From Lachnospiraceae bacterium (GTDB lineage Bacteria > Bacillota > Clostridia > Lachnospirales > Lachnospiraceae), in assembly GCA_024684055.1 (NCBI GenBank), contig JAIKXN010000118.1:1-44606 (forward strand): a DNA stretch of 44,606 nucleotides, given 5' to 3'. Shown in pieces: positions 7,252-28,004 of the stretch (the first letter of the stretch is position 1; each line of letters begins with the position of its first letter). Made by a program: the position numbers and the translations under genes. The notes beneath the pieces were generated by a model. The model saw nothing but the letters and a program-made list of their open reading frames with translations. It was not told the origin of the DNA and did no database searches.

Positions 7252-7275
7252 TAAAAGGAAAGGAGAAGCACTTAA

Positions 7276-7650: not shown

Positions 7651-7671
7651 CACCTCAAAGAAGAGAAAGAA

Positions 7672-7719
7672 AGATAAAAGATAAAAAAGATAAAAGATAA
7701 AGAAGATAAAAGATAATGT
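7672..7719 (+). repeat. Three tandem 16-bp AGATAAAAGATAAARA units
   Basis: Units at 7672-7687, 7688-7703 and 7704-7719 are nearly identical. They lie in the 198-bp gap between the two PII-like genes. The rest of the gap is also purine rich with no other visible element before the GGAAGGAT ribosome site of the next gene. Confidence 0.75.
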
Positions 7720-7848
7720 AAGATGAATAAAAAACACAAGCAGAAAAGATATACCGATATGTCGCCTGAAAAGAGATAAAACAGCAGTGAAACTGAAAGA
7801 ATGAATTAATGATATGTCGGGACAAAATTTTATGGAAGGATACCGGTT

Positions 7849-8160
7849 ATGAAGAATTCGGATTATCAGATGATAATATGCATAGTTAATGAAGGTTACT
7901 CACAGGTGGTTATGGAGGCAGCCAAAGAAGCGGGTGCCGGAGGAGGAACCGTCATTCACGGAAGAGGAACTGCGAATAAGGAAGCCGAAAAAATGTTCGG
8001 AATAGTCATTCAGCCTGACAAGGAAATCGTACTTATCATTGTCAAAAATGCGATCAGAGACAAAATTCTGGAGGCTGTCAACAAGGAAACCGGACTTGAA
8101 ACGGCCGGAGGCGGCATCGCATTCTCTTTGCCGGTCGACAGAACAATAGGATTATCATAA
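7849..8160 (+). CDS. PII-like regulatory protein 2
   Basis: A 103-residue protein closer to canonical PII than its neighbour. QMIICIVNEGYSQVVMEAA is the first strand-helix unit, GGGTVIHGRGTAN (residues 32-44) is the T-loop region, and EIVLIIVKNAIRDKILEAV with GGGIAFSLPVDRTIGL closes the fold. Its association with a DUF1538 permease in the same operon suggests that the two PII-like proteins work on that transporter. The start follows GGAAGGATACCGGTT. A bidirectional terminator closes the transcription unit. Confidence 0.75.
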   Translation: MKNSDYQMIICIVNEGYSQVVMEAAKEAGAGGGTVIHGRGTANKEAEKMFGIVIQPDKEIVLIIVKNAIRDKILEAVNKETGLETAGGGIAFSLPVDRTIGLS

Positions 8161-12801: not shown

Positions 12802-12814
12802 AGGATACATAAAA

Positions 12815-15664
12815 ATGATAAGATTTATCAAATATAAAATACTGAATAAAAGATGGCTGAATTTATGTCTTCTTACCGGAGTTATTCTTCTTTCCGGATT
12901 CCTTTGTGTTTATCCCATGTTTAAAGAAGGAAGCTTAAACAGGAAAATGCAGAGTCTTTTCCATGAATACATTGAGAAAAACAAAGAATTTCCGGCTGCC
13001 GTATGGACAAGAGGCGAAGTGACGGGAGAGAGTTATTCCGATGTCGATTCCGTTATTGCATTCATGGACGAACTTGCAGCCACATGGGGCAGATATCTTG
13101 ATATTCCGATGATGGAAAAGGAGCAGATAATCGAGATCAATGCAGGTTACGGAGAAGAAAGTCTTACCGGAAAATCCAGACAGATAACTCTTGATTATGT
13201 CAATAATTTAAAAGATCATGCGGATATCGTCTGCGGAGTCTGGCCCGATGAGGCAGGATCTTCCGATAACGAAATGGTCAAAGAGGCTTTAAATGCAGGT
13301 GCGCTTCCCTGTGTGGTTTCAGCGGCCACATATGAAAGAGACAGCATTACTCTCGGCCAGACTTTCAGGGCAACTCTTAATAAATCCAATGACAAAAACG
13401 AATTTGTAATGGTCATTGTCGGAATTATCGAAGAAAAAGACGACGGTGTTCCCTTCTGGCAGAAAAGGCTTGAAAAATACAACAGAAGCCTGTTTTTCAG
13501 TAAAGACGATTACTCGCTTCTTATGAAGAGTTACAGTATCGGAACGATGTATTATCAGGAATATGTCACGCTTGATTATACATATATCAATTACAACAAT
13601 GCCGAGGACTTTTACTCATATCTCGTACAGTTTCAGAATATAGATCCCGAGTTTGGAAGCAATTTCAAAAATATAATAAGTTCGTACATGGAAAGCAAGA
13701 AAACCATAAGTGCAATCCTCTTTACTTTTGAAATTCCCATTGTGGCAATGCTTCTTTTATTCATTTTCATGATTTCGGGCAGAATCCTTGAGATGGAAAC
13801 AAATGAGATCGCAATGCTCAAGAGCCGCGGCGTCAGCAGAGGAAAGATCATAATTCTTTATATCATACAGTCTGCGATCATTTCGTTTGTCGGTTCGATC
13901 ATCGGACTTCCTCTGGGTTATTTCTTCTGCAAACTCGGAGCGGGAACGGATTCATTCCTTGGATTTACGCTTAAGGATACAAGCATTTATTCTCCCAATC
14001 TTACAATGCTTGTTTTTGCGGGAATAGCATTCGGACTGTCAATGCTTTTTATGATCATTCCGGTTATTCCCATTTCGAAATATACGATCATTGAAAGAAA
14101 ATCACATAAAAATGAAGGCAAGGCCAAGCCTTTATGGGAAAAGTTTTTCCTTGATATTCCTCTTCTCGGATTGTCAATCTATCTTTTGTTTAACTATCTT
14201 AAACAAAGAGAAGCAATCTCGCTGGCGATTGTATCGGGAGGACAGATTGACCCAATCATTTTCTTGGATTCTTCGCTTTTTATTTTGGGATGCGGTCTGT
14301 TCGCATTAAGAATACTCCACCTTCTTACCAACCTTATTTACAAGATCGGCAAGAAGAAATGGAAACCCGCTGAATACGTTGCATTTTTGCAGATAATAAG
14401 AACAACCAAAAAACAGGGATTCATTTCCGTATTTCTTGTAATGACGATCGCGCTCGGAATTTTCAATTCCAATCTTGCCAGAAGCGTTAACGAGAATATG
14501 GAGAGAAGAATAGATTATAATGTCGGATGTGATTATATTCTGGAAGAAAAGTGGGAGATCATATTAAAGAAACTCGGCTCGAACGGACCTACCTACTGGC
14601 GTTACAAGGAACCCGACATAAACAGATTTGAACCGCTCAAAGCTCTTGGCGTCGAAAGCATGACAAGAGTTGTAAAAGACAAAAATACCGAAGTGACGGT
14701 CGGAAGACAAAAAGAACTCGGATGTACTCTTTATGCGGTCAACACCAGGGAATTCGGTCAGACGGCATCGCTTAAGGACGGACTTAACGACAAACACTGG
14801 TATAACTACTTAAACGATCTGTCGCAAAAGCCCAACGGTGTGATCATTTCCAGAAACCTTGCCGAAAAATATGAACTTAACGTCGGCGACAAGATTGAGT
14901 ACGGAAGATATTCGCCTGTTGAATCGAATAAGCTTTATGCATCCGCAAAGCCTGAAATAGTCGGAATAGTCGATTCCTTCCCGGGATTCGAATCAAAGAT
15001 ATATCTTCTTCAGGATGACGGAACATATAAGACAAAAGACAATTATCTGCTTGTTGTAAATTATACAAGCGAGGTCGAGACATTTTCGCTTCGTCCTTAC
15101 GAAATATGGATGAAATTAACTCCCAATGCGGACTATAAGGAAATCGATGCGTTCTTGCGCGAAAATGACATAAAGACCGATTCGACCACAAGCAGAGCGA
15201 AACTTATTCAGGATCAGAGGGATTCGACACTTATTCAGATTACAAACGGTATGTTCTCTATAGGATTTGTTATTTCGCTGACCGTTTGTGCGGTAGGATT
15301 CCTGATTTACTGGATACTTACCATAAGAGAAAGAGAACTCATTTACGGTATTTACCGTTCCATGGGTATGACAATGGGAGAAATGTTCAGAATGCTTGCA
15401 CTTGAACAGATGTTTTCATCACTGTTTGCGTGTGCGGCCGGTTTCGGAGTCGGCATTCTTACAACGTTCCTGTTTACGAAACTTATTTCCATTGTTTATC
15501 TTCCGAGAGAACACAACATACCTCTTGAAGTTATCTTCAAAGCCGCGGATGCAGGCAAGATGGTTGCAATTGTATTAATTGTATTCCTGGTATGCTTTAT
15601 GATAATTTACAGAATTATTAAGAACATGAATATTACCAAGGCTATTAAACTTGGTGATGACTGA
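12815..15664 (+). CDS. ABC exporter permease with two FtsX modules
   Basis: A 949-residue permease of the MacB/LolC-type (FtsX) class. An N-terminal membrane helix (about 14-32) precedes a large extracytoplasmic domain (33-300). A first FtsX module (about 303-425, with NEIAMLKSRGVSRGKI as the coupling segment) is followed by further helices near 450-540. Then comes a second outside domain (about 570-800) and a second FtsX module (about 805-940, with RERELIYGIYRSMGMTMGEM). Both halves of a usual dimer are thus joined in one chain. The next gene, an ATPase, starts within 14 bases of this stop. Substrate is unknown. Confidence 0.85.
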   Translation: MIRFIKYKILNKRWLNLCLLTGVILLSGFLCVYPMFKEGSLNRKMQSLFHEYIEKNKEFPAAVWTRGEVTGESYSDVDSVIAFMDELAATWGRYLDIPMMEKEQIIEINAGYGEESLTGKSRQITLDYVNNLKDHADIVCGVWPDEAGSSDNEMVKEALNAGALPCVVSAATYERDSITLGQTFRATLNKSNDKNEFVMVIVGIIEEKDDGVPFWQKRLEKYNRSLFFSKDDYSLLMKSYSIGTMYYQEYVTLDYTYINYNNAEDFYSYLVQFQNIDPEFGSNFKNIISSYMESKKTISAILFTFEIPIVAMLLLFIFMISGRILEMETNEIAMLKSRGVSRGKIIILYIIQSAIISFVGSIIGLPLGYFFCKLGAGTDSFLGFTLKDTSIYSPNLTMLVFAGIAFGLSMLFMIIPVIPISKYTIIERKSHKNEGKAKPLWEKFFLDIPLLGLSIYLLFNYLKQREAISLAIVSGGQIDPIIFLDSSLFILGCGLFALRILHLLTNLIYKIGKKKWKPAEYVAFLQIIRTTKKQGFISVFLVMTIALGIFNSNLARSVNENMERRIDYNVGCDYILEEKWEIILKKLGSNGPTYWRYKEPDINRFEPLKALGVESMTRVVKDKNTEVTVGRQKELGCTLYAVNTREFGQTASLKDGLNDKHWYNYLNDLSQKPNGVIISRNLAEKYELNVGDKIEYGRYSPVESNKLYASAKPEIVGIVDSFPGFESKIYLLQDDGTYKTKDNYLLVVNYTSEVETFSLRPYEIWMKLTPNADYKEIDAFLRENDIKTDSTTSRAKLIQDQRDSTLIQITNGMFSIGFVISLTVCAVGFLIYWILTIRERELIYGIYRSMGMTMGEMFRMLALEQMFSSLFACAAGFGVGILTTFLFTKLISIVYLPREHNIPLEVIFKAADAGKMVAIVLIVFLVCFMIIYRIIKNMNITKAIKLGDD

Positions 15665-15677
15665 TGACGGTGAAAAT

Positions 15678-16364
15678 ATGGAAAGTATAATCAAAACAAT
15701 CGATATTCATAAGAGTTTCCCACTCGGAAATCACGAGATGCTTGAGGTTTTAAAGGGTGTTGATTTTGAAGTTCAGCCAGCGAGCCTTACTATTTTAAAA
15801 GGCCGTTCCGGTTCCGGAAAAACAACGCTTTTAAATATCTTAAGCATGCTTGACGATCCCACTTCGGGTAAAGTCATTATAGACAATACCGATGTGGGAA
15901 GCATGAGTGTTAGAAAAAGAGAACTCATGAGAAGATACAACGTGGGATTTATTTTTCAGTCTGTTGCACTCGTTCCCATCATGAGCGCGTACGAGAACGT
16001 GGATTTCGGACTGAAACTCGCGGAATACAAGGGAGACAGGGATGCAAGAATCAAGGAAGTGCTGTCCATAGTCGGCCTTGAAAAAAGGATTAACCACATG
16101 CCTTCGCAGATGTCCGGCGGTGAGCAGCAGAGAGTGGCAATTGCCAGAGCCGTTGCGCACAAGCCCAAGATCATTTTTGCCGACGAACCTACCGGCGCTC
16201 TTGATACCGCAACAGGTCTCGGGATCATCTCTCTTTTCAAGAAACTTATCGAAAAAGAGGGCATTACCATAGTTATGACCACGCATGACCCCAACCTTAT
16301 GAGTTTCGGCGACGCTGTTTATGAAATGGAAGACGGAGAATTAAGATATGTACCCGGAGAATAA
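15678..16364 (+). CDS. ABC transporter ATP-binding protein 1 (MacB/LolD type)
   Basis: A 228-residue ATPase, complete for the family: Walker A GRSGSGKTT (42-50), Q-loop FIFQS, signature MSGGEQQRVAIARA, Walker B IIFADEPTGALD and switch TTHD. I chose ATG 15678, preceded by GACGGTGA, because the protein then begins like related ATPases. In-frame TTG 15651 and ATG 15657 are alternatives that would overlap the permease gene. It should energise the double-FtsX permease together with the second ATPase. Confidence 0.88.
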   Translation: MESIIKTIDIHKSFPLGNHEMLEVLKGVDFEVQPASLTILKGRSGSGKTTLLNILSMLDDPTSGKVIIDNTDVGSMSVRKRELMRRYNVGFIFQSVALVPIMSAYENVDFGLKLAEYKGDRDARIKEVLSIVGLEKRINHMPSQMSGGEQQRVAIARAVAHKPKIIFADEPTGALDTATGLGIISLFKKLIEKEGITIVMTTHDPNLMSFGDAVYEMEDGELRYVPGE

Positions 16365-17286
16365 TACCACAGTTGAAAACGAGAATATCGAAGAAGTTAA
16401 AAAAGACAATATCCTTGTCTGCGACGGACTGGTTAAACTGTATAAAACCAAAGATGTTGAAGTAATGGCTCTTCAGGGACTCGAACTTGAAATAGGAAGG
16501 GGAGAACTTGTTGCGATCATCGGAAAGAGCGGCAGCGGAAAATCCACACTTCTTAACATGATCGGAGGACTTGAAAAACCCACTACCGGAAAGCTTTACG
16601 TTGACGGAAACGATCTGTTTGCCATGCCTGAAAAAGGACTCGTTGAGTACAGAAGACATACTGTCGGCTTTGTCTGGCAGAACAGCGGACAGAACCTCTT
16701 CCCGTATCTGACTGCACTGCAGAATGTTGAAGCGCCGCTCTACTTTGAAAATATGAGTCAGAAGAAGAGAAAAGAAAAAGCTTTAAGCCTTATGAAGATG
16801 ATCGGAATAGATCATAAAGCAAATTCTTATCCGACTCAGATGTCCGGCGGTGAACAGCAGAGAGTTGCCATAGCCGTGGCGCTTGCGCACGATCCGAAGA
16901 TACTGCTTGCGGACGAGCCTACCGGTGCGGTTGATTCGAAAACTTCCAACATGATCCAGGATATCTTCAGGAAGATAAATCAGGAAACGGGGATCACGAT
17001 CATCATAGTTACGCATGATATAAGCCTTGCGAACAAGGTTTCCCGAGTTATCATGATTGCCGACGGAAAGATAAGTACCGAGAAGATCATGAAGGAACAG
17101 TATCGTCAGCAGCTTGACAAACTTACGACGGAAAGTCTTGCCGAAGTTGAATCGCACGAGGAATATTCGATCCTTGATAAAGCGAGAAGAGTTCAGCTCT
17201 CGCAGGAAGCGCTTGAGATGGCTGGCATCGATTCGAACAAGGTCAGAGTAGAAGTTAAAGACGGAAAGATCATTATATCAAAGTGA
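16348..17286 (+). CDS. ABC transporter ATP-binding protein 2 with C-terminal extension
   Basis: A 312-residue ATPase with Walker A GKSGSGKST, signature MSGGEQQRVAIAVA, Walker B LLADEPTGAVD and switch VTHD. All are intact, so it should hydrolyse ATP. About 25 extra residues precede the ATPase core. About 75 follow it (QQLDKLTTESLAEVESHEEY, then ARRVQLSQEALEMAGI and VRVEVKDGKIIISK), an unusual tail for a LolD-like protein. The start overlaps the first ATPase by 17 bases and has a GGAGAA site. It probably forms a heterodimer with ATPase 1 on the fused permease. A terminator follows. Confidence 0.88.
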   Translation: MYPENNTTVENENIEEVKKDNILVCDGLVKLYKTKDVEVMALQGLELEIGRGELVAIIGKSGSGKSTLLNMIGGLEKPTTGKLYVDGNDLFAMPEKGLVEYRRHTVGFVWQNSGQNLFPYLTALQNVEAPLYFENMSQKKRKEKALSLMKMIGIDHKANSYPTQMSGGEQQRVAIAVALAHDPKILLADEPTGAVDSKTSNMIQDIFRKINQETGITIIIVTHDISLANKVSRVIMIADGKISTEKIMKEQYRQQLDKLTTESLAEVESHEEYSILDKARRVQLSQEALEMAGIDSNKVRVEVKDGKIIISK

Positions 17287-17389: not shown

Positions 17390-18076
17390 TTACATATGAA
17401 ATCGTTTTTTGAATTCCGAAATAACGGTACGTCCTCTGAATATTGCGAGACCGAAAAATGCAAGTCCGTTTATAACAAGACATATCGACCATGCGATGGG
17501 CGGAACACCGTCATTGATGATAAGGATAACCAGCCACGGGACAACGCCTGCGAACATGTTTAGGAACATGTATATGAGCGAATGATCGGTGAAATGTTTG
17601 TCTACGAGAGAGAGTACAAAGTTTGCGATCATGTTTGCGCTGCAAAGGATCGGAATGATGTAGATCGGAGTAATACCGAGGAACGGGACATCCCACGCAA
17701 GGTAAATAAATGTTTCCGTAAAAATCGAAAGAAGCGAGACCGTTACAAACGATAAAAACAAAGTTTTCAGGAGATTGTAATGCTTCCTTAAAATGAATTC
17801 CAAAAGCCAGCCCGAAACGAGAAGCCATCCGACAACGATGGGGCTCCAGGTAGGATGCGGAATGTTCAGAAACAGATAATCCACGGCAAGATTGATGATG
17901 CATACCGCTATCACGCTGAATGACACGATCTTAAATGCGATGTGTCTTTTGCGGTATTTGTCTTCGATCTTTGGCCAGTGCTCCTTTTCGCCTTCGCCTG
18001 TCAGAAGATTCTGGCAGAGAGGGCATTTTTCATGATTTCCGCCTATATTAATTTTGCAGTGAGGACAGTATTTCAT
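17390..18076 (-). CDS. Zinc-ribbon integral membrane protein (DUF6320-like)
   Basis: A 228-residue protein. It begins with a zinc ribbon (CPHC at residues 4-7 and CPLC near 18-21), a short linker, then about six or seven membrane helices from residue 48 to 215, and a basic tail. I recognise it as similar to DUF6320 proteins, with no known reaction. The start has an AAGGTAG site. It follows the condensation-type acyltransferase and the alpha/beta hydrolase in the same direction, so it is probably the last gene of that minus-strand unit. Confidence 0.6.
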   Translation of the reverse strand: MKYCPHCKINIGGNHEKCPLCQNLLTGEGEKEHWPKIEDKYRKRHIAFKIVSFSVIAVCIINLAVDYLFLNIPHPTWSPIVVGWLLVSGWLLEFILRKHYNLLKTLFLSFVTVSLLSIFTETFIYLAWDVPFLGITPIYIIPILCSANMIANFVLSLVDKHFTDHSLIYMFLNMFAGVVPWLVILIINDGVPPIAWSICLVINGLAFFGLAIFRGRTVISEFKKRFHM

Positions 18077-18113
18077 TTTCTACCTTCTTACAAATTAAAT
18101 ATCCGAAGTAAAA

Positions 18114-19370
18114 TTAATCATAAAGTTCCGTGGAATAAAGAGTTATATCCACGCCTTCATCGGCGAGACCTTTTATAAAGTCTCTTAAAACCTGCGTGCT
18201 TTTGTATGCGCTGCTGATTCCGAGTGTAAGTTTGTCATTATACGTGCTGCAGACAACAAACAATGCGGATGTCGAGCAGAAAGCACAGTAGGAATCGATA
18301 TATTCGGTAAGTTCGTCAGGTACCTTCAGACGTCCCAGATTGGAAAGAACGGCAGTAACCTTACGGTTTGTTTTTTTGGTAACCATGTTAACTACGGGAT
18401 TCTTTATGAAAAGCGGTACCAGTCTTATGAAGAAGAAATTTTCCAGTTTTTCGTAATTGTACATTCTTTCTTCGACCGCTTCCGGTAAAAGTTCCTTCTT
18501 TAAATTCTCATTGAATTCGGTTGCTACATTTTCGAATGTGTCACCGTTTTTGAAACTGTGACTGACGTTAACCGAATTAAAGAAATTTCTCGATGTATTT
18601 GAAGGATAGTAGTTTCTTAGATTGACGGGCATGCTTATTGTGACGGGTTTAATCCGTTTTAATACCGGCATGTCCTTGTATATGCTCATCATAAGTCTCG
18701 AAGCGATATATGAAGTTAATGAAACATTTGCTTCATGAGCTTTGTTCAATATGTCGCTGACACTCATGTGTACTTCCATGAACTGGATCTGGTTGTAAGG
18801 AAGTTTGGCACCTTTCAAGTGATATGCGTTTCTTGTTCTTTTCTTTTTTGCGGAAACGTTTTTCTTTGAGTAATAATGCCTGAAGCTGTCCTGCGAAAGA
18901 TCGGCTTCGGAAGCACCGCTTGTCATGGTAAGATCGGGGATCTTTTTGGGATGTTTTAATTTAAGATAGTGATAAACGATCAGATTTAAAAATTCGATTG
19001 CGCCGTTGCCGTCGGCGATTGCATGGAAGAAATCCAGATTGATCCTGTTGTGATAATATGTCACGCGGTAATGAAGTTTGCCGAATGTTTTATAATCGAT
19101 AAGCATGGGGCAGGGACGGTCATTTTCTTCGCATACAACAGGTGTGTCATCGGTCTGTTCCATGTAATGCCAGAAGAGTCCGCGCAAAATAGTAACCTGA
19201 TACTGCGGTCTTTCTTTTGCGGCCGCATTAACAGCTTCTTTTAAAACACTTTCTTCAATTTCTTCCTTTAAGGTACAACTCATTCGAAAAGATCTTGTGT
19301 CGCGTTCATTGGCGCTTGCCAGGAAAACTTTTGCGACATTATCCATTCTGTACCATGTATCGTGTGCCAT
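18114..19370 (-). CDS. Condensation-type O-acyltransferase (alcohol acetyltransferase/PapA-like)
   Basis: A 418-residue protein of the condensation-domain/alcohol acetyltransferase fold. The catalytic motif is HAIADG (His116, Asp120), and the later segments ASRLMMSIYKDM, SMPVNLRNYYPS and VTAVLSNLGRLKVPDE match the floor-loop and latch regions of the fold. Such enzymes move acyl groups from a CoA or carrier protein to an alcohol or amine. No membrane segment is evident. It lies between the hydrolase and the zinc-ribbon membrane protein. Its nearness to the ACP/ketosynthase operon makes it a candidate tailoring acyltransferase there (inference). The ribosome binding site is weak. Confidence 0.78.
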   Translation of the reverse strand: MAHDTWYRMDNVAKVFLASANERDTRSFRMSCTLKEEIEESVLKEAVNAAAKERPQYQVTILRGLFWHYMEQTDDTPVVCEENDRPCPMLIDYKTFGKLHYRVTYYHNRINLDFFHAIADGNGAIEFLNLIVYHYLKLKHPKKIPDLTMTSGASEADLSQDSFRHYYSKKNVSAKKKRTRNAYHLKGAKLPYNQIQFMEVHMSVSDILNKAHEANVSLTSYIASRLMMSIYKDMPVLKRIKPVTISMPVNLRNYYPSNTSRNFFNSVNVSHSFKNGDTFENVATEFNENLKKELLPEAVEERMYNYEKLENFFFIRLVPLFIKNPVVNMVTKKTNRKVTAVLSNLGRLKVPDELTEYIDSYCAFCSTSALFVVCSTYNDKLTLGISSAYKSTQVLRDFIKGLADEGVDITLYSTELYD

Positions 19371-19406
19371 GTCTTTAACCTGCGTTAAAAATTCAGTTTG
19401 AATGTA

Positions 19407-20399
19407 TCAGTATAATTCTTCAATAAATTTGGAAATCGATTCCATAGCTTTAAAAGTTTTTGCAAAGGGCATCATCTGGAATACATGCCAGGCATCCTCA
19501 TATTCTTCGAGAGTGACCGTGACGCCCTGCTCTATAAGCCTGGCATAAAGATTGTATGAATCGGATTTCAAAATTTCATTTGAACCCACCTGTATCATAA
19601 AGGGAGGAAAATCCGTAAAGTCAGCATTGATCGGACTGTATTTTACATCGGAATAATCGAAATCGAAATCCTCGATAATGGGATTGTCCTTTTCGGATTC
19701 GTTGTAATGCGTGTTTAATCCGACGTAAGAATATCTGGCAGAAGCTATATATTCTTTAGTGAGAATGGGGTCGGATTCTTTGCATGTTTTGTATGATTCG
19801 CCGGACATTGTCATGTCGGTCCAGGGGCTCATAAGAACGATTCCTTTCGGAAGAAGTCTTCCCTGAGATTTAAGTTTGAGTACGAGCTCGAGAGCAAGGT
19901 TTCCGCCTGCCGAATCTCCGACAACGATGATCTCTCGGGCGCCGAATCCCATATGCATAAGATAATTCCATATCGTGAGAGCATCTTCTATTGCAGCGGG
20001 ATAGGGGTTTTCCGGAGCGAGTCTGTATTCAAAAGACATTACCGGAATTGATGTGAAAGAACATAATTTTGAAGCGACAACTCTTGCATATTTAAGACTG
20101 CCGCATGTATATCCGCCGCCGTGACAGTAAAGAATGGCACGGCGCTTGTCATGTTTATATTCGGGTCTAACCCATTCGCAAGGAATTCCCTTGACTGAAA
20201 GAGGAGCGGTATCTATGTTTGCGGAATGGGAAGAAAGACCGCCGAACAGATCCTGACCGGCACGCTGTTTTTTGATATCTTCGAGCAGGATCGAATTGCC
20301 TGAGGATGAAACGGAGTGTATTGTTTTCACTGCTTTCATGACAGGCGACATTGAATGATCTGAATTCTCTAAGTTGGGGAATTTGATTAATCTGCTCAT
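19407..20399 (-). CDS. Alpha/beta hydrolase, hormone-sensitive-lipase (HSL) type esterase
   Basis: A 330-residue esterase. The oxyanion motif HGGGYTCGS starts at residue 93, the nucleophile is Ser163 in GDSAGGN, and the expected acid and histidine lie in QVGSNEILKSDS and DAWHVFQMMPF near the C-terminus. This is the HSL (family IV) layout; it hydrolyses short to medium acyl esters. No signal peptide is seen, so it is probably cytosolic. An AAGGA site precedes the start. It is transcribed with the acyltransferase downstream (37-bp gap). Confidence 0.88.
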   Translation of the reverse strand: MSRLIKFPNLENSDHSMSPVMKAVKTIHSVSSSGNSILLEDIKKQRAGQDLFGGLSSHSANIDTAPLSVKGIPCEWVRPEYKHDKRRAILYCHGGGYTCGSLKYARVVASKLCSFTSIPVMSFEYRLAPENPYPAAIEDALTIWNYLMHMGFGAREIIVVGDSAGGNLALELVLKLKSQGRLLPKGIVLMSPWTDMTMSGESYKTCKESDPILTKEYIASARYSYVGLNTHYNESEKDNPIIEDFDFDYSDVKYSPINADFTDFPPFMIQVGSNEILKSDSYNLYARLIEQGVTVTLEEYEDAWHVFQMMPFAKTFKAMESISKFIEELY

Positions 20400-20504: not shown

Positions 20505-21083
20505 TTACCTGGCAAGGTTTGAAAGCATTACGTCCACAACACCGTCAAGCATTTCTATACCGTGTTCGAGAGTGTCCACGGGATCGTCGCTGCTTTTTCC
20601 TCTGAGCCATTCGACGGTAGTCTCCGCAAATATTTTCGAGAAAAAGTACGCGAGTCTTTTTTTGTCTTTTTCACTGACTTTTCTGCCCGTGGGTATTATT
20701 TTGTCTTCGCAGAGGTTATTGATATTCTGATAAGCCATTGAAGAAACCACATCCACGATATAATCGCCGAAAGCATCCCTTCCCATTGAATTGAAAAGGT
20801 TTCTTATGAAAATTTCGTTTTTTCTTGCGTAAGCTCCGATGATACGAAGATTGGATTTCCAGGATTCGCTCGAGGAGAAATCGAGATTGACGAAAAGCTT
20901 TCCTGCCTTTGCATAAATGATCTCTTCTTTCAGAGCATACAGGTCCTGATAGTAATAATAGAACGTGTTTCTGTTGATGCCGCAGTTATCGCAGACTTTC
21001 TTTATGGTTATTTTATCCATGGGCATTTGTTGGGCAAGTTCGACAAAGCTGTCCATGATGGCTTTTTTGGTAAATTGAGACAT
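20505..21083 (-). CDS. TetR family transcriptional regulator
   Basis: A 192-residue regulator. The N-terminal helix-turn-helix is clear (ITIKKVCDNCGINRNTFYYYYQDLYALKEE, residues 25-54 in several short pieces), typical of the TetR/DhaS-like group. The rest is the helical ligand-binding domain. It is divergent from the flavoprotein-acyltransferase-ACP-ketosynthase operon, with a 217-bp gap that holds repeated GTTAAC elements. It is therefore a candidate regulator of that operon and of the hydrolase/acyltransferase genes downstream of it. Confidence 0.87.
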   Translation of the reverse strand: MSQFTKKAIMDSFVELAQQMPMDKITIKKVCDNCGINRNTFYYYYQDLYALKEEIIYAKAGKLFVNLDFSSSESWKSNLRIIGAYARKNEIFIRNLFNSMGRDAFGDYIVDVVSSMAYQNINNLCEDKIIPTGRKVSEKDKKRLAYFFSKIFAETTVEWLRGKSSDDPVDTLEHGIEMLDGVVDVMLSNLAR

Positions 21084-21300: not shown

Positions 21301-22047
21301 ATGAAGATTTTGCTTTTGAACGGAAGCATGAGAGGAAATTCGAGTTCATCGCTTAAGGTGGCCGAAGCTTTCGTTCGGGGAATTGTAAGTGAAGACAAAA
21401 ATGCCGAAGTGATCAAGGTTAATCTTCGGGACAAAAATATAGAGCACTGTTACGGCTGCTTTTGCTGCTGGAAAATAAACAAAGGACAGTGCATCATCCG
21501 CGATGACATGGATGAGATAAGAAAACTTGTTCTCGAATCAGATGTTATCATAGAAAGTTTTCCTCTTTATTTCTTCGGGCTTCCTTCCAAAATGAAAGCG
21601 TTCATGGACAGGATGATCAATTTCGTTTCGGAATACAGAGCCGTGAACGGAGATGAGGCGACGGGAAGATTCCTGCATGACATGAGATATCCCGAACTTT
21701 TAAAAAAGAAACTTGTTCTGGTATCGGCCTGCGGATATGAGGAAACCGTGGACTGTTACGATTCGGTAATAAACCAGTTTGACAAAATCTGCGGACACGA
21801 TAATTATACGAGGATCTTTGTTCCTCAGGGAGGAATGCTTGCGGAAGAGACTTTCGAAAACAAAGTTGCAAGATACCTTGTAAAATTTGAGGAAGCCGGA
21901 AAAGAATTTGTTCGAAACGGAAAGCTTTCCGAGGAAACGGAAACGAAGCTTCAGATTCCGATGCTCGGACACAATACATTTTCGAGAGCAATCAACATGA
22001 ACTGGGATGAACCGGGCGTAGGCCCTTACGGAAAGGTAGTTAAGTGA
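21301..22047 (+). CDS. NAD(P)H-dependent FMN flavoprotein (flavodoxin-like fold)
   Basis: A 248-residue protein. The N-terminus MKILLLNGSMRGNSSSSLKVAE is the FMN phosphate-binding loop of the NADPH-dependent FMN reductase group. It is followed by a Cys-rich YGCFCCWK segment near residue 46 and a ESFPLYFFGLPSKMKAFMDRM helix typical of this family. It is probably a soluble quinone or FMN reductase that reduces a small substrate. It is the first gene of the lipid/polyketide-type operon. Its TGA shares one base with the ATG of the next gene, so both are coupled. Confidence 0.8.
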   Translation: MKILLLNGSMRGNSSSSLKVAEAFVRGIVSEDKNAEVIKVNLRDKNIEHCYGCFCCWKINKGQCIIRDDMDEIRKLVLESDVIIESFPLYFFGLPSKMKAFMDRMINFVSEYRAVNGDEATGRFLHDMRYPELLKKKLVLVSACGYEETVDCYDSVINQFDKICGHDNYTRIFVPQGGMLAEETFENKVARYLVKFEEAGKEFVRNGKLSEETETKLQIPMLGHNTFSRAINMNWDEPGVGPYGKVVK

Positions 22048-22763
22048 TGTTAAAAAAATTAAACTGGGCATTCGAGGCCGTAATAGTAGCATTTCTTTAT
22101 ATAGGTACCTGGCCGGTCCTTCGAATCCTGTATCCGAGAAGAATTATCTGGGAAGACAAAAAAGCATCTCAGAAAGTCATGAAACAGCCCTGCGTAATAT
22201 ATTCGAATCATACGGGCTATTCTGACGGACTTTTTACATTTGATATTTTAAGAAAATACAATCCGTACACTTTCATAGGAAAAGACTGGTACGAAAAAAA
22301 CTATTTTTTCCACAGACTCTTAATGCACAGAAGATACATACCTCTGGACAGGGAACAGATGGATACTTCCTGGCTTATGAAGGGCAAGAAAGTCGTTGAT
22401 GACGGATGCAGCATTTTCTTCTTCCCCGAAGGACATACCAGCAAGGACGGACTTCTTCTTGAGTTTCAGCCCGGATTTCTGATGCTGGCAAAGCAGGGAA
22501 ACATACCTCTGGTTCCGATCTGCCTTGACAGAAAAGTCGATTTCTTCAAGCCGGTAAGGGTTATCATAGGCAAGCCGATCTACATCGATTTTTCCAAAGA
22601 ACCCGGAAGACCTTCGATCGTTTTGAAAAAATTTGCAAACGAATGCAGGGATTCGATCATAGATCTTAAGGACAGATACGGCAATCCGAAGTTTGTCACA
22701 AAGGACGTAACCGATTACAGAGAAAGAAAAGCAGCCCAAAACTCAGATGCTGCAAACGCTTAA
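22047..22763 (+). CDS. PlsC-like 1-acylglycerol-3-phosphate O-acyltransferase
   Basis: A 238-residue acyltransferase of the lysophospholipid acyltransferase family. Motif NHTGYSD (His55, Asp60) is the catalytic HX4D block and FFPEGHTS (126-129 for FPEG) the third block; VPICLDR fits block four. A hydrophobic N-terminal helix (about 8-28) would anchor it to the membrane. I prefer ATG 22047, which overlaps the preceding TGA, over GTG 22044. It may transfer the acyl chain built by the following genes onto a glycerolipid or another acceptor. Aryl-polyene clusters also carry such an enzyme, so the role need not be phospholipid synthesis. Confidence 0.85.
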   Translation: MLKKLNWAFEAVIVAFLYIGTWPVLRILYPRRIIWEDKKASQKVMKQPCVIYSNHTGYSDGLFTFDILRKYNPYTFIGKDWYEKNYFFHRLLMHRRYIPLDREQMDTSWLMKGKKVVDDGCSIFFFPEGHTSKDGLLLEFQPGFLMLAKQGNIPLVPICLDRKVDFFKPVRVIIGKPIYIDFSKEPGRPSIVLKKFANECRDSIIDLKDRYGNPKFVTKDVTDYRERKAAQNSDAANA

Positions 22764-22849: not shown

Positions 22850-23098
22850 ATGAACGAGAAAGAACTCGCAATTGCGGCCAGAATCAAAGAAATGTTGTCA
22901 GAGAATTTAAGAATTCCTGCAGAAGAACTTGATTATGAAATCCCTCTTTTCGGAGACGGAATCGGACTCGATTCGGTTGATTCACTTGAAATTATTGCGT
23001 GCATCGACAGCGAATACGGTGTTGCCATGACAGGCGTTGCAAAAGAGAATTTCTACAACATTACAAGTCTCACAAAATACGTTGTTGAGAACATGTAA
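22850..23098 (+). CDS. Acyl carrier protein of the type II synthase operon
   Basis: An 82-residue carrier protein. The phosphopantetheine attachment site is Ser42 in GLDSVDSLEI, and the four-helix layout and acid-rich surface match ACPs. The motif is LDSVDS rather than DSLDSLD, a shift often seen in specialised carriers. A consensus AAAGGAGAG site lies upstream. It sits between a PlsC-like acyltransferase and the double ketosynthase, so it most likely carries the growing chain made by the genes downstream. No phosphopantetheinyl transferase is encoded in the window. Confidence 0.93.
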   Translation: MNEKELAIAARIKEMLSENLRIPAEELDYEIPLFGDGIGLDSVDSLEIIACIDSEYGVAMTGVAKENFYNITSLTKYVVENM

Positions 23099-23105
23099 AA
23101 AATTT

Positions 23106-23131
23106 TTCGCGGGGGATTTTTCTCCCGCGAA
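23106..23131 (+). other. GC-rich hairpin between ACP and ketosynthase genes
   Basis: TTCGCGGG (23106-23113) pairs perfectly with CCCGCGAA (23124-23131) around a GGATTTTTCT loop. There is no T-run after the stem, so it could be a weak attenuator or an mRNA 3' stabiliser that keeps ACP message abundant relative to the ketosynthase. Confidence 0.55.
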
Positions 23132-23317
23132 TTATTGAAATACGAAGTTTGAAAAGATTTTGAAAATGAAACTTTGTATTCACGATTTCGGAACGGTTTT
23201 GACACGATGCCCTTATATAATGGGTGATGCAGCGTTTAAAAACCGTTTGTCAGACGAGAAAAATTCGGCACTGCCGATGAACATAAAAATTTTTCACGAA
23301 ACAAAGGAGTTTGAGAA

Positions 23318-25702
23318 ATGGGAAATATAAACGCCAGATGCGTTGTTACCGGACTCGGAATGGTAAACGCAATAGGAAAGAATGTTGACGAATGCTGGGA
23401 GAATGCTCTTAAAGGAACTCCCGGGATCGACAGAGTAAAGAGTGTAAATTCGGATGCCTGCTACGCACATCTCGGTGCTGAAGTAAAAGATTCCGACATA
23501 GAAAAGAACGATAAAGTCGACAGAGTATCTGTTCTCTGCCTTCAGGCTTCAAAGGAAGCTTTAAAAGACGCAGGCATTACAGAAGGAAGCATTGATGCTT
23601 CGAGAATGGGCGTTATCATGGGAAGCTGCGTCGGCGGTGTCGTAAGTATCGAAAACTACATCGAAAAAGGCGAGAAAACAGAAGACATCAACAAGATGTC
23701 GATCGCATCGATTGCAAACCATGTAGCTGACATGGCAGGAGCAAAAGGTGTTGTTACGAATATAGGAAATGCATGTGCTGCAAGTACAATGAGTGTTGCA
23801 TATGCATGTGAACTTATCAGAGCAGGCGTGGGCGATGTGTTTATCGCAGGCGGTGCGGATGCATTTGCATCAGTTCCTTTTGCGGGATTTACCGCACTTC
23901 ATGCACTTTCCGAAAATCCCTGCTCACCTTTCAACCATTCAAACGGTATCACACTCGGCGAAGGCGCAGGCGCTATCATCGTTGAGTCTTATGAGCATGC
24001 AGTTAAAAGAGGCGCTCATATTTACTGCGATGTTTTATCCGCAGGTATAAGCTCCGACGCACATCATATTACCGCTCCCCGTCCCGACGGGATCGGTCAG
24101 ATGTATGCGATAAGAAGAGCGGTTGAAAAGTCGGGAATCAAATATGAAGAACTCGATTATGTGAACGCTCACGGAACGGGAACGGCTAAGAATGACGAAG
24201 CTGAATTCCTTTCACTTCATACGATTTTCGATGACGTTAACGACCATTTAAGCGTTTCTTCCACAAAGGCAATGGTTGGTCATTGTCTCGGCGCCGCAGG
24301 TGCCATCGAAGCGGTATATGCAATCAAGGCGCTTACGGACAACAAGGTTCCGCCCACAATAGGATATACGGCTGAGGATCTTGAAACACTTAAAGAGAAA
24401 GCCGGAAAGATCGATTTCATGCCCAATGAAATGAAAGAAAAAGAAATGAATTACGTAATGAGCAATTCATTCGCATTCGGCGGAAGCAATGCAAGTATCA
24501 TCTTTGCAAAGAACGAAGGAAACATGGGCGAAAAGGAAAATGATGAAGATATCTATGTAACGGGTATCGGTATCGTTTCGCCTGTCGGAAACGGTCTTGA
24601 GAATTACATTGCAAAGGTTAACGGCATTGTTAAGAACGAAGAAGTAAATCTTGTTTCCGAACTCGGAAAAGAAGATTTTGACAAATACGATATCAAGCTT
24701 GCATTTTACCGTAAACTCGACAAACTTTCCACGATGCAGGTTGTATCGGGTATCGAAGCTATCAAAGATGCAGGTTTTGAATTCAATGATGAAAATGCCG
24801 AGGACTTCGGTATGATAATCGGTACCGGTGACGGCCCCATTACCACTGTTTATGAATTCCAGGAGCATATTTCAAAAGAAGGAACACAGAACGGCTCCGC
24901 ATTTAACTTCCCCAATACCGTTTACAATGCGGCAGGCGGATATCTTTCGATCAAGACAGGCATGAGAGGCTACAATGTTACAATCACAAACGGCAATCAG
25001 TCAGGTCTCGGCTCGGTATGTTATGCCGCAAACGAAATCAGACAGAGCAGAGCAAAAGCAATGCTTGCTTCGGGAAGCGATGAAAACAGCGATGTAATGA
25101 AGAAGCTTTATACACAGCTCGGTCTTGTTGCCGATGCAAAGGGCGGTATCTACGAGAATGAAAAAGGTATAGCTCTTTCGGACGGTTCCGTAACGCTTGC
25201 ACTTGAGAGCGCATCAAACGCAGCTTCACACAACGCAAAGAAATACGCAAAGATTGCAGGATATGCAATGACACACGAAGGTGTCGGATACGGTAACATC
25301 AAGGGCTCCGATGCAGGTCTTGAAAATGCCGTAAAGGAAGCTTTAAAGGCAGCAGATATCGACGCAGACAAAATCGATGCGATCTTCGGTTTCGGTAACG
25401 GTCTTGAAGAAGTTGACAGCATTGAAAAGAATGTTTACGGCAAACTTTTTGACAAAGAAATGCCCGTGATCAACGTTAAGGATTATGTGGGCGAAGCCAG
25501 AGCGGCAGCAGCAACACTCGGTGCAGCTCATGCGGCACTTACTCTTTCCGGAGACCTTTCAAAAGAGCAGGACGCATACTTCATGAAGGACGGAAACGTT
25601 CGTACAGGAAAGGTTAATACGGAAGGTTTTGAATACGTACTTGTAACATCATACGCTACGGGCGGTTCATACAGTGCGGTTATTCTTAAGAAAGTCAACT
25701 GA
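23318..25702 (+). CDS. Fused ketosynthase and chain-length-factor-like protein (KS-KS')
   Basis: A 794-residue protein made of two FabF-like ketosynthase domains. The first (about 1-400) is complete: Cys153 in GNACAAS, His285 in NAHGTGT, Lys317 and His322 in TKAMVGHCLGAAG, and SFAFGGSN. It should condense malonyl-ACP with an acyl chain. The second (about 411-794) keeps the fold (YVTGIGIVSPVG; SYATGGSYS) but ungapped alignment puts Asn560 at the Cys, Phe692 at the first His and Glu726 at the second His; only Lys721 remains. That fits a non-condensing partner like the KS-beta/chain-length factor of type II polyketide and aryl-polyene systems. KS-CLF joined in one chain is known from PUFA synthases, but there within larger megasynthases. 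The start follows AAAGGAG. Confidence 0.9.
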   Translation: MGNINARCVVTGLGMVNAIGKNVDECWENALKGTPGIDRVKSVNSDACYAHLGAEVKDSDIEKNDKVDRVSVLCLQASKEALKDAGITEGSIDASRMGVIMGSCVGGVVSIENYIEKGEKTEDINKMSIASIANHVADMAGAKGVVTNIGNACAASTMSVAYACELIRAGVGDVFIAGGADAFASVPFAGFTALHALSENPCSPFNHSNGITLGEGAGAIIVESYEHAVKRGAHIYCDVLSAGISSDAHHITAPRPDGIGQMYAIRRAVEKSGIKYEELDYVNAHGTGTAKNDEAEFLSLHTIFDDVNDHLSVSSTKAMVGHCLGAAGAIEAVYAIKALTDNKVPPTIGYTAEDLETLKEKAGKIDFMPNEMKEKEMNYVMSNSFAFGGSNASIIFAKNEGNMGEKENDEDIYVTGIGIVSPVGNGLENYIAKVNGIVKNEEVNLVSELGKEDFDKYDIKLAFYRKLDKLSTMQVVSGIEAIKDAGFEFNDENAEDFGMIIGTGDGPITTVYEFQEHISKEGTQNGSAFNFPNTVYNAAGGYLSIKTGMRGYNVTITNGNQSGLGSVCYAANEIRQSRAKAMLASGSDENSDVMKKLYTQLGLVADAKGGIYENEKGIALSDGSVTLALESASNAASHNAKKYAKIAGYAMTHEGVGYGNIKGSDAGLENAVKEALKAADIDADKIDAIFGFGNGLEEVDSIEKNVYGKLFDKEMPVINVKDYVGEARAAAATLGAAHAALTLSGDLSKEQDAYFMKDGNVRTGKVNTEGFEYVLVTSYATGGSYSAVILKKVN

Positions 25703-25803: not shown

Positions 25804-26550
25804 ATGGAAAATACTGAAAAGAAGATAGCTCTTGTAACCGGCGCAAGCCGCGGTATCGGCCGTGCATGTGCCATCGCACTCGGCAAAAAAGGGTATCTTG
25901 TGGTTATAAATTACAACTCAAATGAAGATGCCGCTTTGGAAGTTAAAGGCATTATCGAAGAAGCAGGCGGAGAAGCAGACATTTACAAGGCAAATGTTTC
26001 CGATCTTAACGAAGTTAAACTCATGTTCAGAGAGATAAGCAAGAAATTCGGAAAGATCGATGTTTTGGTAAACAATGCGGGAATCGTTAAGGACGAATAT
26101 GTTCTTATGATGACACCCGATGTGATTGACAAATGCCTGGACCTTAACATTAAAGGTTATATGTACTGCTCACAGCAGGCAGCCCTTAAGATGTTCTCAA
26201 AGAAAAAAGGCTGCATCATAAATGTTTCATCGGTTAGTTCCAAACTTGCTGTTGCGGGACAGAGCGTATATTCGGCTACCAAGGGTGCGGTTAACTCAAT
26301 GACCGCAACAATGGCAAAAGAACTTGCTCCTTACGGAATCAGAGTGAATGCCGTTGCACCCGGATTTATCGCTACGGACATGGTTGACAAGCTTCCCGAA
26401 GACAAGAAACAGGAATACCTTGATACGATTCCTTTCAAGAGATTCGGTACACCCGAAGAAGTCGGCGATGTCGTTGCAATGCTTGCAAGCGATGAATGCG
26501 CATATATTACAGGTCAGGTCCTTGTGATCGACGGTGGTTTAAGTCTTTAA
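25804..26550 (+). CDS. 3-oxoacyl-ACP reductase (FabG-like ketoreductase)
   Basis: A 248-residue short-chain dehydrogenase that reduces beta-ketoacyl-ACP with NADPH. Nucleotide-binding GASRGIG at 13-19, NNAG at 90-93, Ser143, and the YSATK pair Tyr156/Lys160 are all present, and the C-terminus YITGQVLVIDGG is typical of FabG. It lies in the ACP-ketosynthase operon, and supplies the first reduction after each condensation. A TAAGAGGTG site precedes the start. Confidence 0.93.
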   Translation: MENTEKKIALVTGASRGIGRACAIALGKKGYLVVINYNSNEDAALEVKGIIEEAGGEADIYKANVSDLNEVKLMFREISKKFGKIDVLVNNAGIVKDEYVLMMTPDVIDKCLDLNIKGYMYCSQQAALKMFSKKKGCIINVSSVSSKLAVAGQSVYSATKGAVNSMTATMAKELAPYGIRVNAVAPGFIATDMVDKLPEDKKQEYLDTIPFKRFGTPEEVGDVVAMLASDECAYITGQVLVIDGGLSL

Positions 26551-26602: not shown

Positions 26603-27046
26603 ATGATGAATATTAATGAAGTTCAGAAAAGGATCAAACAGCGTCCTCCTTTTCAGATGATAGAAAAGGTAATAGAGATCAGAGGCGGTGAATACGCAAA
26701 GGGAATCAAAAACGTATCCATCAACGAGCCTTATTTTATGGGGCATTTTCCCGATGCACCCATTATGCCCGGCGTGCTTATTGTGGAAGCATGCGCACAG
26801 CTTTGTTCCGTAACCATTGAAAGTGACGGTACAGACGAAGGCAAGATTTATGTTCTTTTGAAATGTGACGAATTCAAATTCGTTAAACCGGTACTTCCCG
26901 GAGATACATTAACAATTGAAGTCACAAAAGACGGAGGCGGAGCGGGACTCGTGAAATTCGACTGCAAGGCCTTTGTTGACGGAGAAATCCGCGCTAAAGG
27001 AAAACTCGCATTTTGTGCGGTAGATAAGGAGAATATTTATGGGTAA
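26603..27046 (+). CDS. 3-hydroxyacyl-ACP dehydratase (FabZ-like)
   Basis: A 147-residue hotdog-fold dehydratase that removes water from 3-hydroxyacyl-ACP to give the trans-2-enoyl form. The catalytic motif GHFPDAPIMPGVLIVEACAQ gives His48 and Glu62. The early RPPFQMIEKV segment is also typical of FabZ. With no enoyl reductase in the operon, the double bond formed here would remain unless a reductase from elsewhere acts. The stop codon overlaps the start of the transacylase gene by 8 bases. Confidence 0.93.
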   Translation: MMNINEVQKRIKQRPPFQMIEKVIEIRGGEYAKGIKNVSINEPYFMGHFPDAPIMPGVLIVEACAQLCSVTIESDGTDEGKIYVLLKCDEFKFVKPVLPGDTLTIEVTKDGGGAGLVKFDCKAFVDGEIRAKGKLAFCAVDKENIYG

Positions 27047-28004
27047 GCGTGTATTCATGTTTCCCGGACAGGGATCGCAGTATATCGGAATGGGCAAAGA
27101 ATTCTATGAGAATTTCGACTGTGCAAAGAAGATATTTGACAAGGCAGGTGAAATAACCGGACTTGATGTTGCGAAAATGTGCTTTGAAGAAAATGACAAA
27201 ATTAACATCACCGAGTATACACAGATCTGTATGCTGACAGTAGAAGCTGCTTTGTTCGCGGTTTTGAAAGAGAAGGGTATTAAATATGATATCACGGCAG
27301 GCTTAAGTCTCGGTGAATACGCTGCTTTGATCGCAAGCGGTGCAATGAGCATGGAGAGTGCTTTCGATATCGTAAGAAAAAGAGGCATCTACATGCAGAA
27401 TGCGGTACCTGAAGGCGGCGGAATGAGCGCTGTTCTCGGACTTGATCCTTCGGTTATCGAAGAAGTATGCAATGAAGTAATGAAGAATAAGGATATGTAC
27501 GATAAAGGGGACAGCTCACTTCCTTTCACGGTTTCCGTGGCAAACTACAATAACCCCAAGCAGACCGTAATTACCGGAAGAAAAGATGCGGTAAGTGCTG
27601 CAGGACAGATCCTTGCAGACAAGGGCGCGCTTAAAGTTGTTGAACTTAACGTAAGCGGTCCTTTCCATTCAAAACTTCTTGAAGGTGCGGGAGAAAAACT
27701 TGCAGAGGCTTTAAAGGATGTGGAGCTTAATGACATCGAAGTTCCTTACATTGCAAACGTAAATGCCGAATATGTAACAGACAAAAACGAGATTAAGGAA
27801 CTGCTTAAGAAACAGGTTTCATCATCGGTAAGATGGCAGCAGTCACTTGAATTAATGATAAAAGACGGCGTGGACGAATTCATTGAAATCGGACCGGGCC
27901 ATACACTTACGGGATTTGTAAAGAAAATTGACAGATCGTTAAAGACAGTCAATATTGATACGCTTGAAGATTTCAACAAATTTATCGAGGCACAGGCAAA
28001 TTAA
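27039..28004 (+). CDS. Malonyl-CoA:ACP transacylase (FabD-like)
   Basis: A 321-residue transacylase that loads malonyl units onto the ACP. FPGQGSQYIGMG at the start, the active Ser90 in GLSLGEY, the arginine in IVRKRG and His210 in SGPFHSKL form the normal active site, and EIGPGHTLTGF near the end is typical. It overlaps fabZ by 8 bases and has an AAGGAGAATATTT site. It probably serves only this operon's ACP, as a housekeeping copy would be expected elsewhere. Confidence 0.93.
   Translation: MGKRVFMFPGQGSQYIGMGKEFYENFDCAKKIFDKAGEITGLDVAKMCFEENDKINITEYTQICMLTVEAALFAVLKEKGIKYDITAGLSLGEYAALIASGAMSMESAFDIVRKRGIYMQNAVPEGGGMSAVLGLDPSVIEEVCNEVMKNKDMYDKGDSSLPFTVSVANYNNPKQTVITGRKDAVSAAGQILADKGALKVVELNVSGPFHSKLLEGAGEKLAEALKDVELNDIEVPYIANVNAEYVTDKNEIKELLKKQVSSSVRWQQSLELMIKDGVDEFIEIGPGHTLTGFVKKIDRSLKTVNIDTLEDFNKFIEAQAN

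What the first reader, a model, noticed from the sequence alone, without database searches (positions are those of the whole stretch)
23318..25702. Single-chain ketosynthase plus chain-length-factor-like domain with an Asn-Phe-Glu site
The protein joins an intact FabF-like ketosynthase (Cys153, His285, His322) to a second ketosynthase fold in which all three catalytic residues are lost (Asn560, Phe692, Glu726 by ungapped alignment), while Lys721 stays. In type II polyketide and aryl-polyene systems the KS and CLF are separate proteins, and PUFA synthases carry them inside megasynthases. A compact KS-CLF didomain in a gut Firmicute operon is uncommon. The Asn at the Cys position, followed by Gln, differs from the usual Gln of CLFs.
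Basis: partly seen in the sequence, partly recalled or inferred. Interest (0 to 1): 0.82.

Follow-up and report, generated by a model that had tools for sequence, protein, structure and literature searches.

The report
Single-chain ketosynthase–chain-length-factor in a lipid operon
A bacterium of the Lachnospiraceae carries one protein that fuses a carbon-chain-building enzyme to an inactive, probably length-setting partner, inside an eight-gene operon that looks built to make an unusual, probably unsaturated, lipid chain; several related genomes keep it where ordinary fatty-acid synthesis genes were not found.

Summary
The ORF is real: 794 codons at 23318-25702 (+), an intact ketosynthase half (C153, H285, K317, H322) fused to a second ketosynthase fold lacking the Cys and both His. 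AlphaFold2 (pTM 0.85) packs the halves together; the best PDB match over the whole chain is the PfaC KS-CLF didomain 6riw (TM 0.77), while single FabF chains reach about 0.44. Both halves branch apart from FabF and form one fused lineage with proteins of Priestia (cyl-like cluster) and Streptomyces. The 'Asn-Phe-Glu site' is no signature: position 560 is S/A/N in 14/8/6 of 28 homologues; Gln561 is invariant. The operon (flavoprotein, PlsC, ACP, KS-CLF, KR, DH, MAT, AccDA) is kept in 29 related loci as far as contigs reach and has no recognised enoyl reductase. In 15 genomes its FabD is the only one found; in 6 of 15 no other ketosynthase was found, in 8 of 15 no FabK. Best reading: a highly reducing type II synthase making a polyene-type acyl chain that PlsC puts on a glycerolipid. 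Rival: it has become the clade's fatty-acid synthase. New variant of a known kind.

The parts
20505..21083 (-). TetR-type regulator (TetR_C_8; TetR_N below its cut-off), divergent from the operon
   Evidence: Pfam; TetR-like gene beside the operon in many relatives, in L. eligens, G027, G047 and G103
21301..22047 (+). Flavodoxin-fold FMN reductase-like protein with C-x2-C-x2-C-x7-C, perhaps an iron-sulfur flavoprotein; first gene of the operon
   Evidence: Pfam; motif in 22 of the 23 relatives where the script found the gene (29 examined), and in L. eligens and G027; the Fe-S reading of the motif is recalled knowledge
22044..22763 (+). PlsC-type acyltransferase (PF01553)
   Evidence: Pfam; conserved neighbour
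22850..23098 (+). Acyl carrier protein, 82 aa, GLDSV phosphopantetheine site
   Evidence: Pfam; motif in 23 of the 23 relatives where the script found the gene (29 examined)
23099..23317 (.). 219-base leader between ACP and KS-CLF with a GC-rich hairpin; predicted RNA structure stronger than shuffles (z -4.35)
   Evidence: no Rfam match
23318..25702 (+). Single-chain KS-CLF, 794 aa: KS half residues 1-405, CLF half 406-794 (cut chosen for the trees)
23774..23776 (+). KS nucleophile Cys153
24995..24997 (+). Codon of Asn560 (FabF Cys position in the CLF half; not conserved)
25804..26550 (+). FabG-type ketoreductase
26603..27046 (+). FabZ-type dehydratase
27039..28004 (+). FabD-type malonyl-CoA:ACP transacylase; only PF00698 match found in this genome
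28038..29735 (+). Fused AccD-AccA carboxyltransferase, 565 aa

Best explanation
[quoted passage not shown] Shown by sequence: the KS half keeps its catalytic residues, the CLF half has lost the Cys and both His, and the operon encodes an elongation set (ACP, KS, KR, DH, MAT, carboxyltransferase) without an enoyl reductase of a known family. Inferred: AccDA (with biotin subunits from elsewhere) makes malonyl-CoA; FabD loads it on the operon's ACP; without a FabH in the operon, a starter arises by decarboxylation of malonyl-ACP or from exogenous acyl-ACP; KS condenses, FabG reduces, FabZ dehydrates, and because no enoyl reductase acts the chain grows as a polyene; the CLF half forms the far end of the tunnel and sets the length; PlsC moves the finished acyl chain to a glycerolipid. 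The flavoprotein would modify or partly reduce the chain or serve redox. TetR controls the operon.
For: Catalytic residues and their loss. Didomain packing: pTM 0.85, whole-chain best match 6riw PfaC KS-CLF, TM 0.77 against 0.43-0.45 for FabF chains. Fused KS halves one clade (99/99; 100/99 without Rahnella), the FabF rows with two FabF-like KS types in another (98/92; 91/90); with E. coli aryl-polyene proteins added, the KS C_RS05580 (ApeO by gene order) falls in the fused-KS group, 99/99. Fused proteins outside Lachnospiraceae sit beside KR, DH, ACP and MAT genes in Priestia, Rahnella and two of four Streptomyces clusters read, with a GCV_T-family gene in Priestia and Rahnella. Core gene order kept in 29 loci as far as contigs reach. 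No FabK-strength hit in 8 of 15 genomes; a FabI query found only the operon's own FabG in 10 of 18 and nothing in 8. L. eligens operon has PlsX; G027 has two PlsC and a patatin, G047 a PlsC and a patatin, as the E. coli APE cluster has a lysophospholipid acyltransferase. The operon coexists with a separate fab cluster in G047 and G103, so it is not simply a FAS duplicate.
Against: No product is known; no starter ligase, thioesterase or exporter is assigned in the window's own operon. The only FabD found and in 14 of 15 genomes the only full AccA lie here, which would also fit a primary fatty-acid role. 7 of 15 genomes have FabK, so an enoyl reductase could act in trans. G027 (99% complete) has KS-CLF as its only KS match (6 of 8 candidates scored) and also FabK and a second FabZ. 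The placement of ApeO with the fused KS rows rests on a long branch (1.9), and with Rahnella or half-size ApeC in the tree the CLF clade is weak. The acidic tunnel residue reported for ishigamide KS-CLF was not located here (paper passages). Two of four Streptomyces clusters read list no KR or DH.
Confidence: 0.6

Rival explanations
1. The KS-CLF operon has taken over primary fatty-acid synthesis in this clade: KS-CLF replaces FabF, and the enoyl reductase is either FabK in trans or, where FabK is missing, the operon's flavoprotein.
For: In 15 of 15 genomes the only FabD found is the operon's, in 14 of 15 the only full AccA. In 6 of 15 no other PF00109 ketosynthase was found; the weak extra hits in 4 of these 6 (and in G007) are thiolases. 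G027, 99% complete, has no other KS match but has FabK. PlsX or PlsC lie in the operons. The whole protein scores 477.6 against the fabF cut-off 493.75, best stretch 7-396.
Against: Two genomes (G047, G103) keep a separate fab cluster beside it. 23 of 150 Lachnospiraceae have no KS match at 1e-20, so some of these bacteria seem to live without making fatty acids and a sole KS need not be a FAS. No FabH hit in 11 of 15, no FabK in 8 of 15. The KS half does not group with FabF. A KS split by a contig end can be missed by the PF00109 search: it missed the FabF fragment on the own genome's C173.
Confidence: 0.2
2. A PUFA-like or mixed pathway: FabZ/FabK acting in trans reduce some double bonds, giving a partly unsaturated long chain, as in PUFA synthases.
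For: Closest whole-chain fold is PfaC KS-CLF; FabK is present in 7 of 15 genomes.
Against: 8 of 15 genomes have no FabK hit; sequence identity to PfaC is only 19%; no isomerase activity of the DH was tested.
Confidence: 0.12
3. An aromatic type II polyketide synthase.
For: KS-CLF architecture.
Against: No cyclase or aromatase among the ten operon-side proteins scanned; FabG and FabZ in the operon; the aromatic KS-alpha and KS-beta of L162 fall outside the fused clades.
Confidence: 0.03
4. An ordinary FabF with a decayed, non-functional second copy.
For: The second half evolves faster (KS 91-93% against CLF 76-79% in the eleven nearest relatives).
Against: The CLF half is full length in 27 of 29 loci (the other two cut by contig ends), with many invariant positions including G559, Q561, S562, G563, and shares a fused lineage with Priestia and Streptomyces.
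Confidence: 0.02

Closest known systems
PfaC KS-CLF didomain of PUFA synthases (PDB 6riw)
   Same: KS and CLF on one chain, same packing (TM 0.77 by query length)
   Different: PfaC is part of a megasynthase (recalled); here the chain is stand-alone, 794 aa, 19% identity, in a dissociated type II operon
Aryl polyene ApeO-ApeC with ApeQ, ApeP, ApeE/F, ApeD
   Same: KS-CLF, KR, DH, ACP, lysophospholipid acyltransferase and no listed ER; KS half groups with C_RS05580, ApeO by order
   Different: ApeC is a separate, half-size protein (240 aa in E. coli); no aryl starter ligase, MMPL or LolA gene among the operon-side proteins scanned here
Granadaene cyl-type clusters; Priestia pBM500 and Rahnella plasmid cyl-like clusters
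   Same: single-chain KS-CLF (809 and 727 aa), KR, DH, ACP and MAT in both plasmid clusters
   Different: no GCV_T (CylF-type) protein among the operon-side proteins scanned here; PlsC, flavoprotein and AccDA instead. The cyl-like label rests on the GCV_T neighbour and is mine
Streptomyces clusters with a fused KS-CLF (L048, L157, L049, L156)
   Same: fused KS-CLF with MAT and ACP; KR and DH also in L048 and L157; three of the four (not L156) were in the trees and share the lineage
   Different: two extra separate KSs and a KSIII there; products not looked up
FabF of type II fatty acid synthesis
   Same: KS half fold and catalytic residues
   Different: separate clade; here fused to a CLF

Membership tests
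KS-CLF (KS-alpha/KS-beta) | Active KS with Cys-His-His and Lys | tested here: met
   28 of 28 rows keep C153, H285, K317, H322
KS-CLF (KS-alpha/KS-beta) | Partner KS fold without the nucleophilic Cys | tested here: met
   N/S/A at 560 in 28 of 28
KS-CLF (KS-alpha/KS-beta) | KS and CLF pack as a pseudo-dimer | tested here: met
   AF2 pTM 0.85; 6riw TM 0.77; a prediction, not a structure
KS-CLF (KS-alpha/KS-beta) | Gln at the Cys position of the CLF (recalled) | tested here: not met
   Gln is one residue later and invariant, 28 of 28; the annotated CLF of L162 also lacks Gln in that column in a pairwise alignment, so it is not universal
KS-CLF (KS-alpha/KS-beta) | CLF sets product length | not testable with these tools
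   needs assay
Single-chain KS-CLF lineage of cyl-like and Streptomyces clusters | Both halves monophyletic with them | tested here: met
   KS 100/99, CLF 100/99 without Rahnella; with Rahnella KS 99/99, CLF 91/46; CLF clade not clean once half-size ApeC is added
Highly reducing type II PKS | KS-CLF + ACP + KR + DH, no ER in the cluster | tested here: met
   the flavoprotein's activity is unknown
Highly reducing type II PKS | Conjugated polyene product | not testable with these tools
   -
Granadaene (cyl) cluster | CylF-type aminomethyltransferase in the cluster | tested here: not met
   none among the ten operon-side proteins scanned
PUFA synthase | KS-CLF inside a multidomain megasynthase | tested here: not met
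   794-aa stand-alone chain
Housekeeping FabF | NCBIfam fabF equivalog cut-off and position among FabF | tested here: not met
   477.6 of 493.75 bits for the whole protein; KS half outside the FabF clade. The broader PRK07314 subfamily cut-off is passed (458.4 over 387)

The most novel reading that the evidence does not exclude
A polyketide-type KS-CLF has replaced FabF as the only carbon-chain elongating enzyme for membrane lipids in a clade of Lachnospiraceae, with a flavodoxin-fold, probably iron-sulfur, protein as a new kind of enoyl-ACP reductase where FabK is absent.
Probability: 0.12. Interest if true: 0.85.

Novelty: new variant of a known kind. Interest (0 to 1): 0.5.

Why it matters
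It gives a natural one-chain KS-CLF of 794 residues, convenient for structure and chain-length work, and points to a lipid pathway in gut and rumen bacteria that I did not find described in the held library. The genome pattern (the only FabD found lies inside a KS-CLF operon, kept where FabF, FabH and FabK were not found) makes a simple question testable: can a polyketide-type synthase stand in for fatty-acid synthesis, or do fatty-acid auxotrophs keep it for one special lipid?

Tried and rejected
Rejected: Asn560/Phe692/Glu726 as a conserved site. Rejected: the weak 25-bit ketosynthase hits in G005, G007, G008, G010, G013 as extra KSs; their ORFs are thiolases by Pfam (320-324 bits). Rejected: FabI as a hidden reductase; hits at 1e-15 were the operon's own FabG, 27-31% identity, in 10 of 18 genomes, none in 8. 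Rejected: cyl cluster membership (no GCV_T protein among those scanned). An AU test (fused KS plus rows named FabF as one clade, p 0.00046) is not used: the held set wrongly left out ApeO and the FabF-like rows inside those clades. VIA-align listed only single-KS rows over about residues 1-403, so it says nothing on the second half. Literature: listings for fused KS-CLF showed no stand-alone fused KS-CLF; a type II PKS catalogue and NaPDoS2 had no fused CLF in the passages found. This covers only the held open library. Not followed: cavity residues (no coordinates available), AccB/AccC location, FabG active-site counts (my pattern was too strict to use). The 15-genome table uses 14 of the 29 related loci, picked by me without a fixed rule, mostly with long flanks, plus the own genome; completeness is told only for G000 (95.02%) and for G012, which I take to be G117 (100%) from equal contig lengths and coordinates. 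G103's KS-CLF match ends at query residue 746. The PF00109 search missed the FabF fragment on G000:C173 that the protein search found, so 'no other KS' in draft genomes means none found.

Full report
OBSERVATION. The reading frame 23318-25702 (+) encodes 794 aa (P0001). Pfam gives two stretches each of the ketoacyl-synthase N and C domains. An AAGGAG stands just before the ATG in the printed sequence.

HOW CONSERVED. The genome-contig scan gave 29 loci, all titled Lachnospiraceae: MAGs, several with ruminant-stomach names and one from horse faeces, and one titled Lachnospiraceae bacterium G41. 27 of 29 hold the whole protein; the other two are cut by contig ends. In 28 rows (27 plus P0001) the KS catalytic residues are invariant, while position 560 is S 14, A 8, N 6; 692 is F 20, L 8; 721 is R 15, K 13; 726 is E 26, D 2; Gln561 is invariant. 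In L. eligens, G027, G047, G103, Priestia, Streptomyces (three) and Rahnella the Cys column holds A, M, A, T, N, H and Q in the multiple alignment; the pairwise alignment agrees except for two of the three Streptomyces CLF halves, where it has a gap or a shifted register. So the Asn is a loose position and the Asn-Phe-Glu triad is no signature. Asp505, which aligns with FabF Ile108 by the printed alignment (the FabF number is counted by me), is invariant in the 28 near relatives but not in the wider set.

PHYLOGENY. Three trees were built. With 51 rows the fused KS halves form one clade, 99/99; nine FabF-named rows and three FabF-like KSs another, 98/92; the fused CLF halves 91/46. Without the three long Rahnella rows: fused KS 100/99, fused CLF 100/99, FabF group 91/90. 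With three E. coli aryl polyene proteins added, the KS C_RS05580 joins the fused KS group, 99/99, on a long branch; the fused CLF halves are then not one clean clade (Priestia splits off beside the half-size C_RS05640). The names ApeO for C_RS05580 and ApeC for C_RS05640 follow from gene order and the description of the cluster in PMC8253772 (passages); the letter-to-locus match is my inference. PfaC and ishigamide sequences were not in the trees.

WHERE ELSE. tblastn in plasmid records found single-chain KS-CLFs in L. eligens (54.6%, 99% of the query), Priestia megaterium (34%) and Streptomyces (about 29-33%). Priestia's lies beside a GCV_T-family gene, KR, DH, ACP and MAT; a Rahnella plasmid has an unannotated 727-aa fused ORF, two PF00109 stretches, in a similar setting; Streptomyces clusters add MAT, ACP and two separate KSs, two of the four read also KR and DH. 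Of 150 Lachnospiraceae genomes at least 90% complete, 5 have the fused protein (G000, G117, G047, G027, G103) and 127 have a KS match of any kind at 1e-20.

OPERON. Flavoprotein, PlsC, ACP, KS-CLF, FabG, FabZ, FabD, AccDA, all on the + strand. In the 29 loci the counts are flavoprotein 23, PlsC 24, ACP 25, KS-CLF 29, FabG 26, FabZ 26, FabD 25, AccDA 23; the missing ones lie beyond contig ends. L. eligens has ACP, KS-CLF, FabG, FabZ, FabD, AccD, a flavodoxin-family protein and PlsX. G027 adds two PlsC, a patatin and an AMP ligase; G047 a patatin and a PlsC. The flavoprotein motif C-x2-C-x2-C-x7-C is in 22 of 23 relatives where the script found the gene.

WHAT ELSE THE GENOMES HAVE. For 15 genomes (own plus 14): FabD (PF00698) one match each, always at the operon (15 of 15); full AccA one each in 14 of 15, G004 having a second; other full-length PF00109 proteins in 9 of 15, none found in G001, G005, G008, G010, G013, G014, the weak extra hits in four of these six (and in G007) being thiolases; a strong FabK hit in 7 of 15; a FabH-type C-domain in 4 of 15. 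FabI: nothing but the operon's FabG in 18 genomes. In FabK-positive G003, G007 and G011, and as far as read in G002 and G009, the order is FabK-FabG-FabF-FabZ-acyl ligase, with an ACP-like gene in front seen in G003 and G007, and no FabD, ACC or FabH there (FabG, FabZ and ligase of G003 checked); in the window's genome the like cluster seems split over C1 and C173. G004 has FabH, AccDA, FabZ, FabF, FabG, FabK and ACP but no FabD in the stretch read. These clusters would have to draw malonyl-ACP from the KS-CLF operon's FabD (inference). G117, 100% complete in about 10 contigs, lacks FabK and has one other KS, in an NRPS-FabH-KS cluster. G027, 99% complete, has KS-CLF as its only KS match, and FabK beside FabZ and a DegV protein. 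G103 has a fab cluster with FabF, FabG, FabD, FabK, AccA, an AccD-like protein and an ACP-like gene, and G047 one with at least FabF, FabG and FabK.

INTERPRETATION. The pieces fit a dissociated, highly reducing KS-CLF pathway: the aryl polyene system has the same KS-CLF, KR, DH, ACP and a lysophospholipid acyltransferase without a listed ER (PMC8358021 passages), and the cyl pathway is described as KS, KR and DH cycles yielding twelve alkenes (PMC6985545, section 7 read). The product is inferred, not shown. The rival that this became the clade's fatty-acid synthase is kept open by the sole-FabD pattern and by G027. At least 60 of 62 rumen butyrivibrio drafts are reported to have FabD, F, G, Z and K (PMC4478896 passages), so the window's clade differs from them.

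NOVELTY. Fusion as such is known in PfaC; compact single-chain forms exist in databases under general names. The Lachnospiraceae operon with PlsC, flavoprotein and AccDA, and its persistence where classical FAS genes were not found, I did not find in print in the held library. I rate it a new variant of a known kind, interest 0.5.

Noticed in passing
G000 contig C54 (L044:2-8424); G117 C9 (L154): A second cluster in the same genome: NRPS-like protein with an adenylation domain, epimerase, metallo-beta-lactamase-fold lactonase-like protein, F390-synthetase-related ligase (TIGR02304), FabH-type KSIII, ACP and a FabF-like KS. Product unknown.
   Followed up: partly
G003 C9 (L113:3827-9160); G000 C1 end and C173 start: ACP-FabK-FabG-FabF-FabZ-acyl ligase cluster without FabD, FabH or ACC; in the window's genome the like cluster seems split over two contigs.
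   Followed up: partly
window 23099-23317: Leader between ACP and KS-CLF with a GC-rich hairpin right after the ACP stop; folding energy z -4.35. Gap length varies among relatives.
   Followed up: no
window 17390-20399 (-): DUF6320 protein, a 418-aa protein that looks acyltransferase-like by eye without Pfam or NCBIfam match, and a hormone-sensitive-lipase-type hydrolase, kept beside the operon in nearer relatives.
   Followed up: partly
window 9480-17286: MacB/FtsX-type export set: two adaptor-like proteins (by eye; the first has no Pfam match), a 949-aa permease and two ABC ATPases (by eye).
   Followed up: no
window 5704-8160: DUF1538 membrane protein followed by two small proteins that look PII-like by eye; the first of them has no Pfam match.
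   Followed up: no
window 1623-2822: GH10 glycoside hydrolase after an AraC-like regulator (by eye).
   Followed up: no
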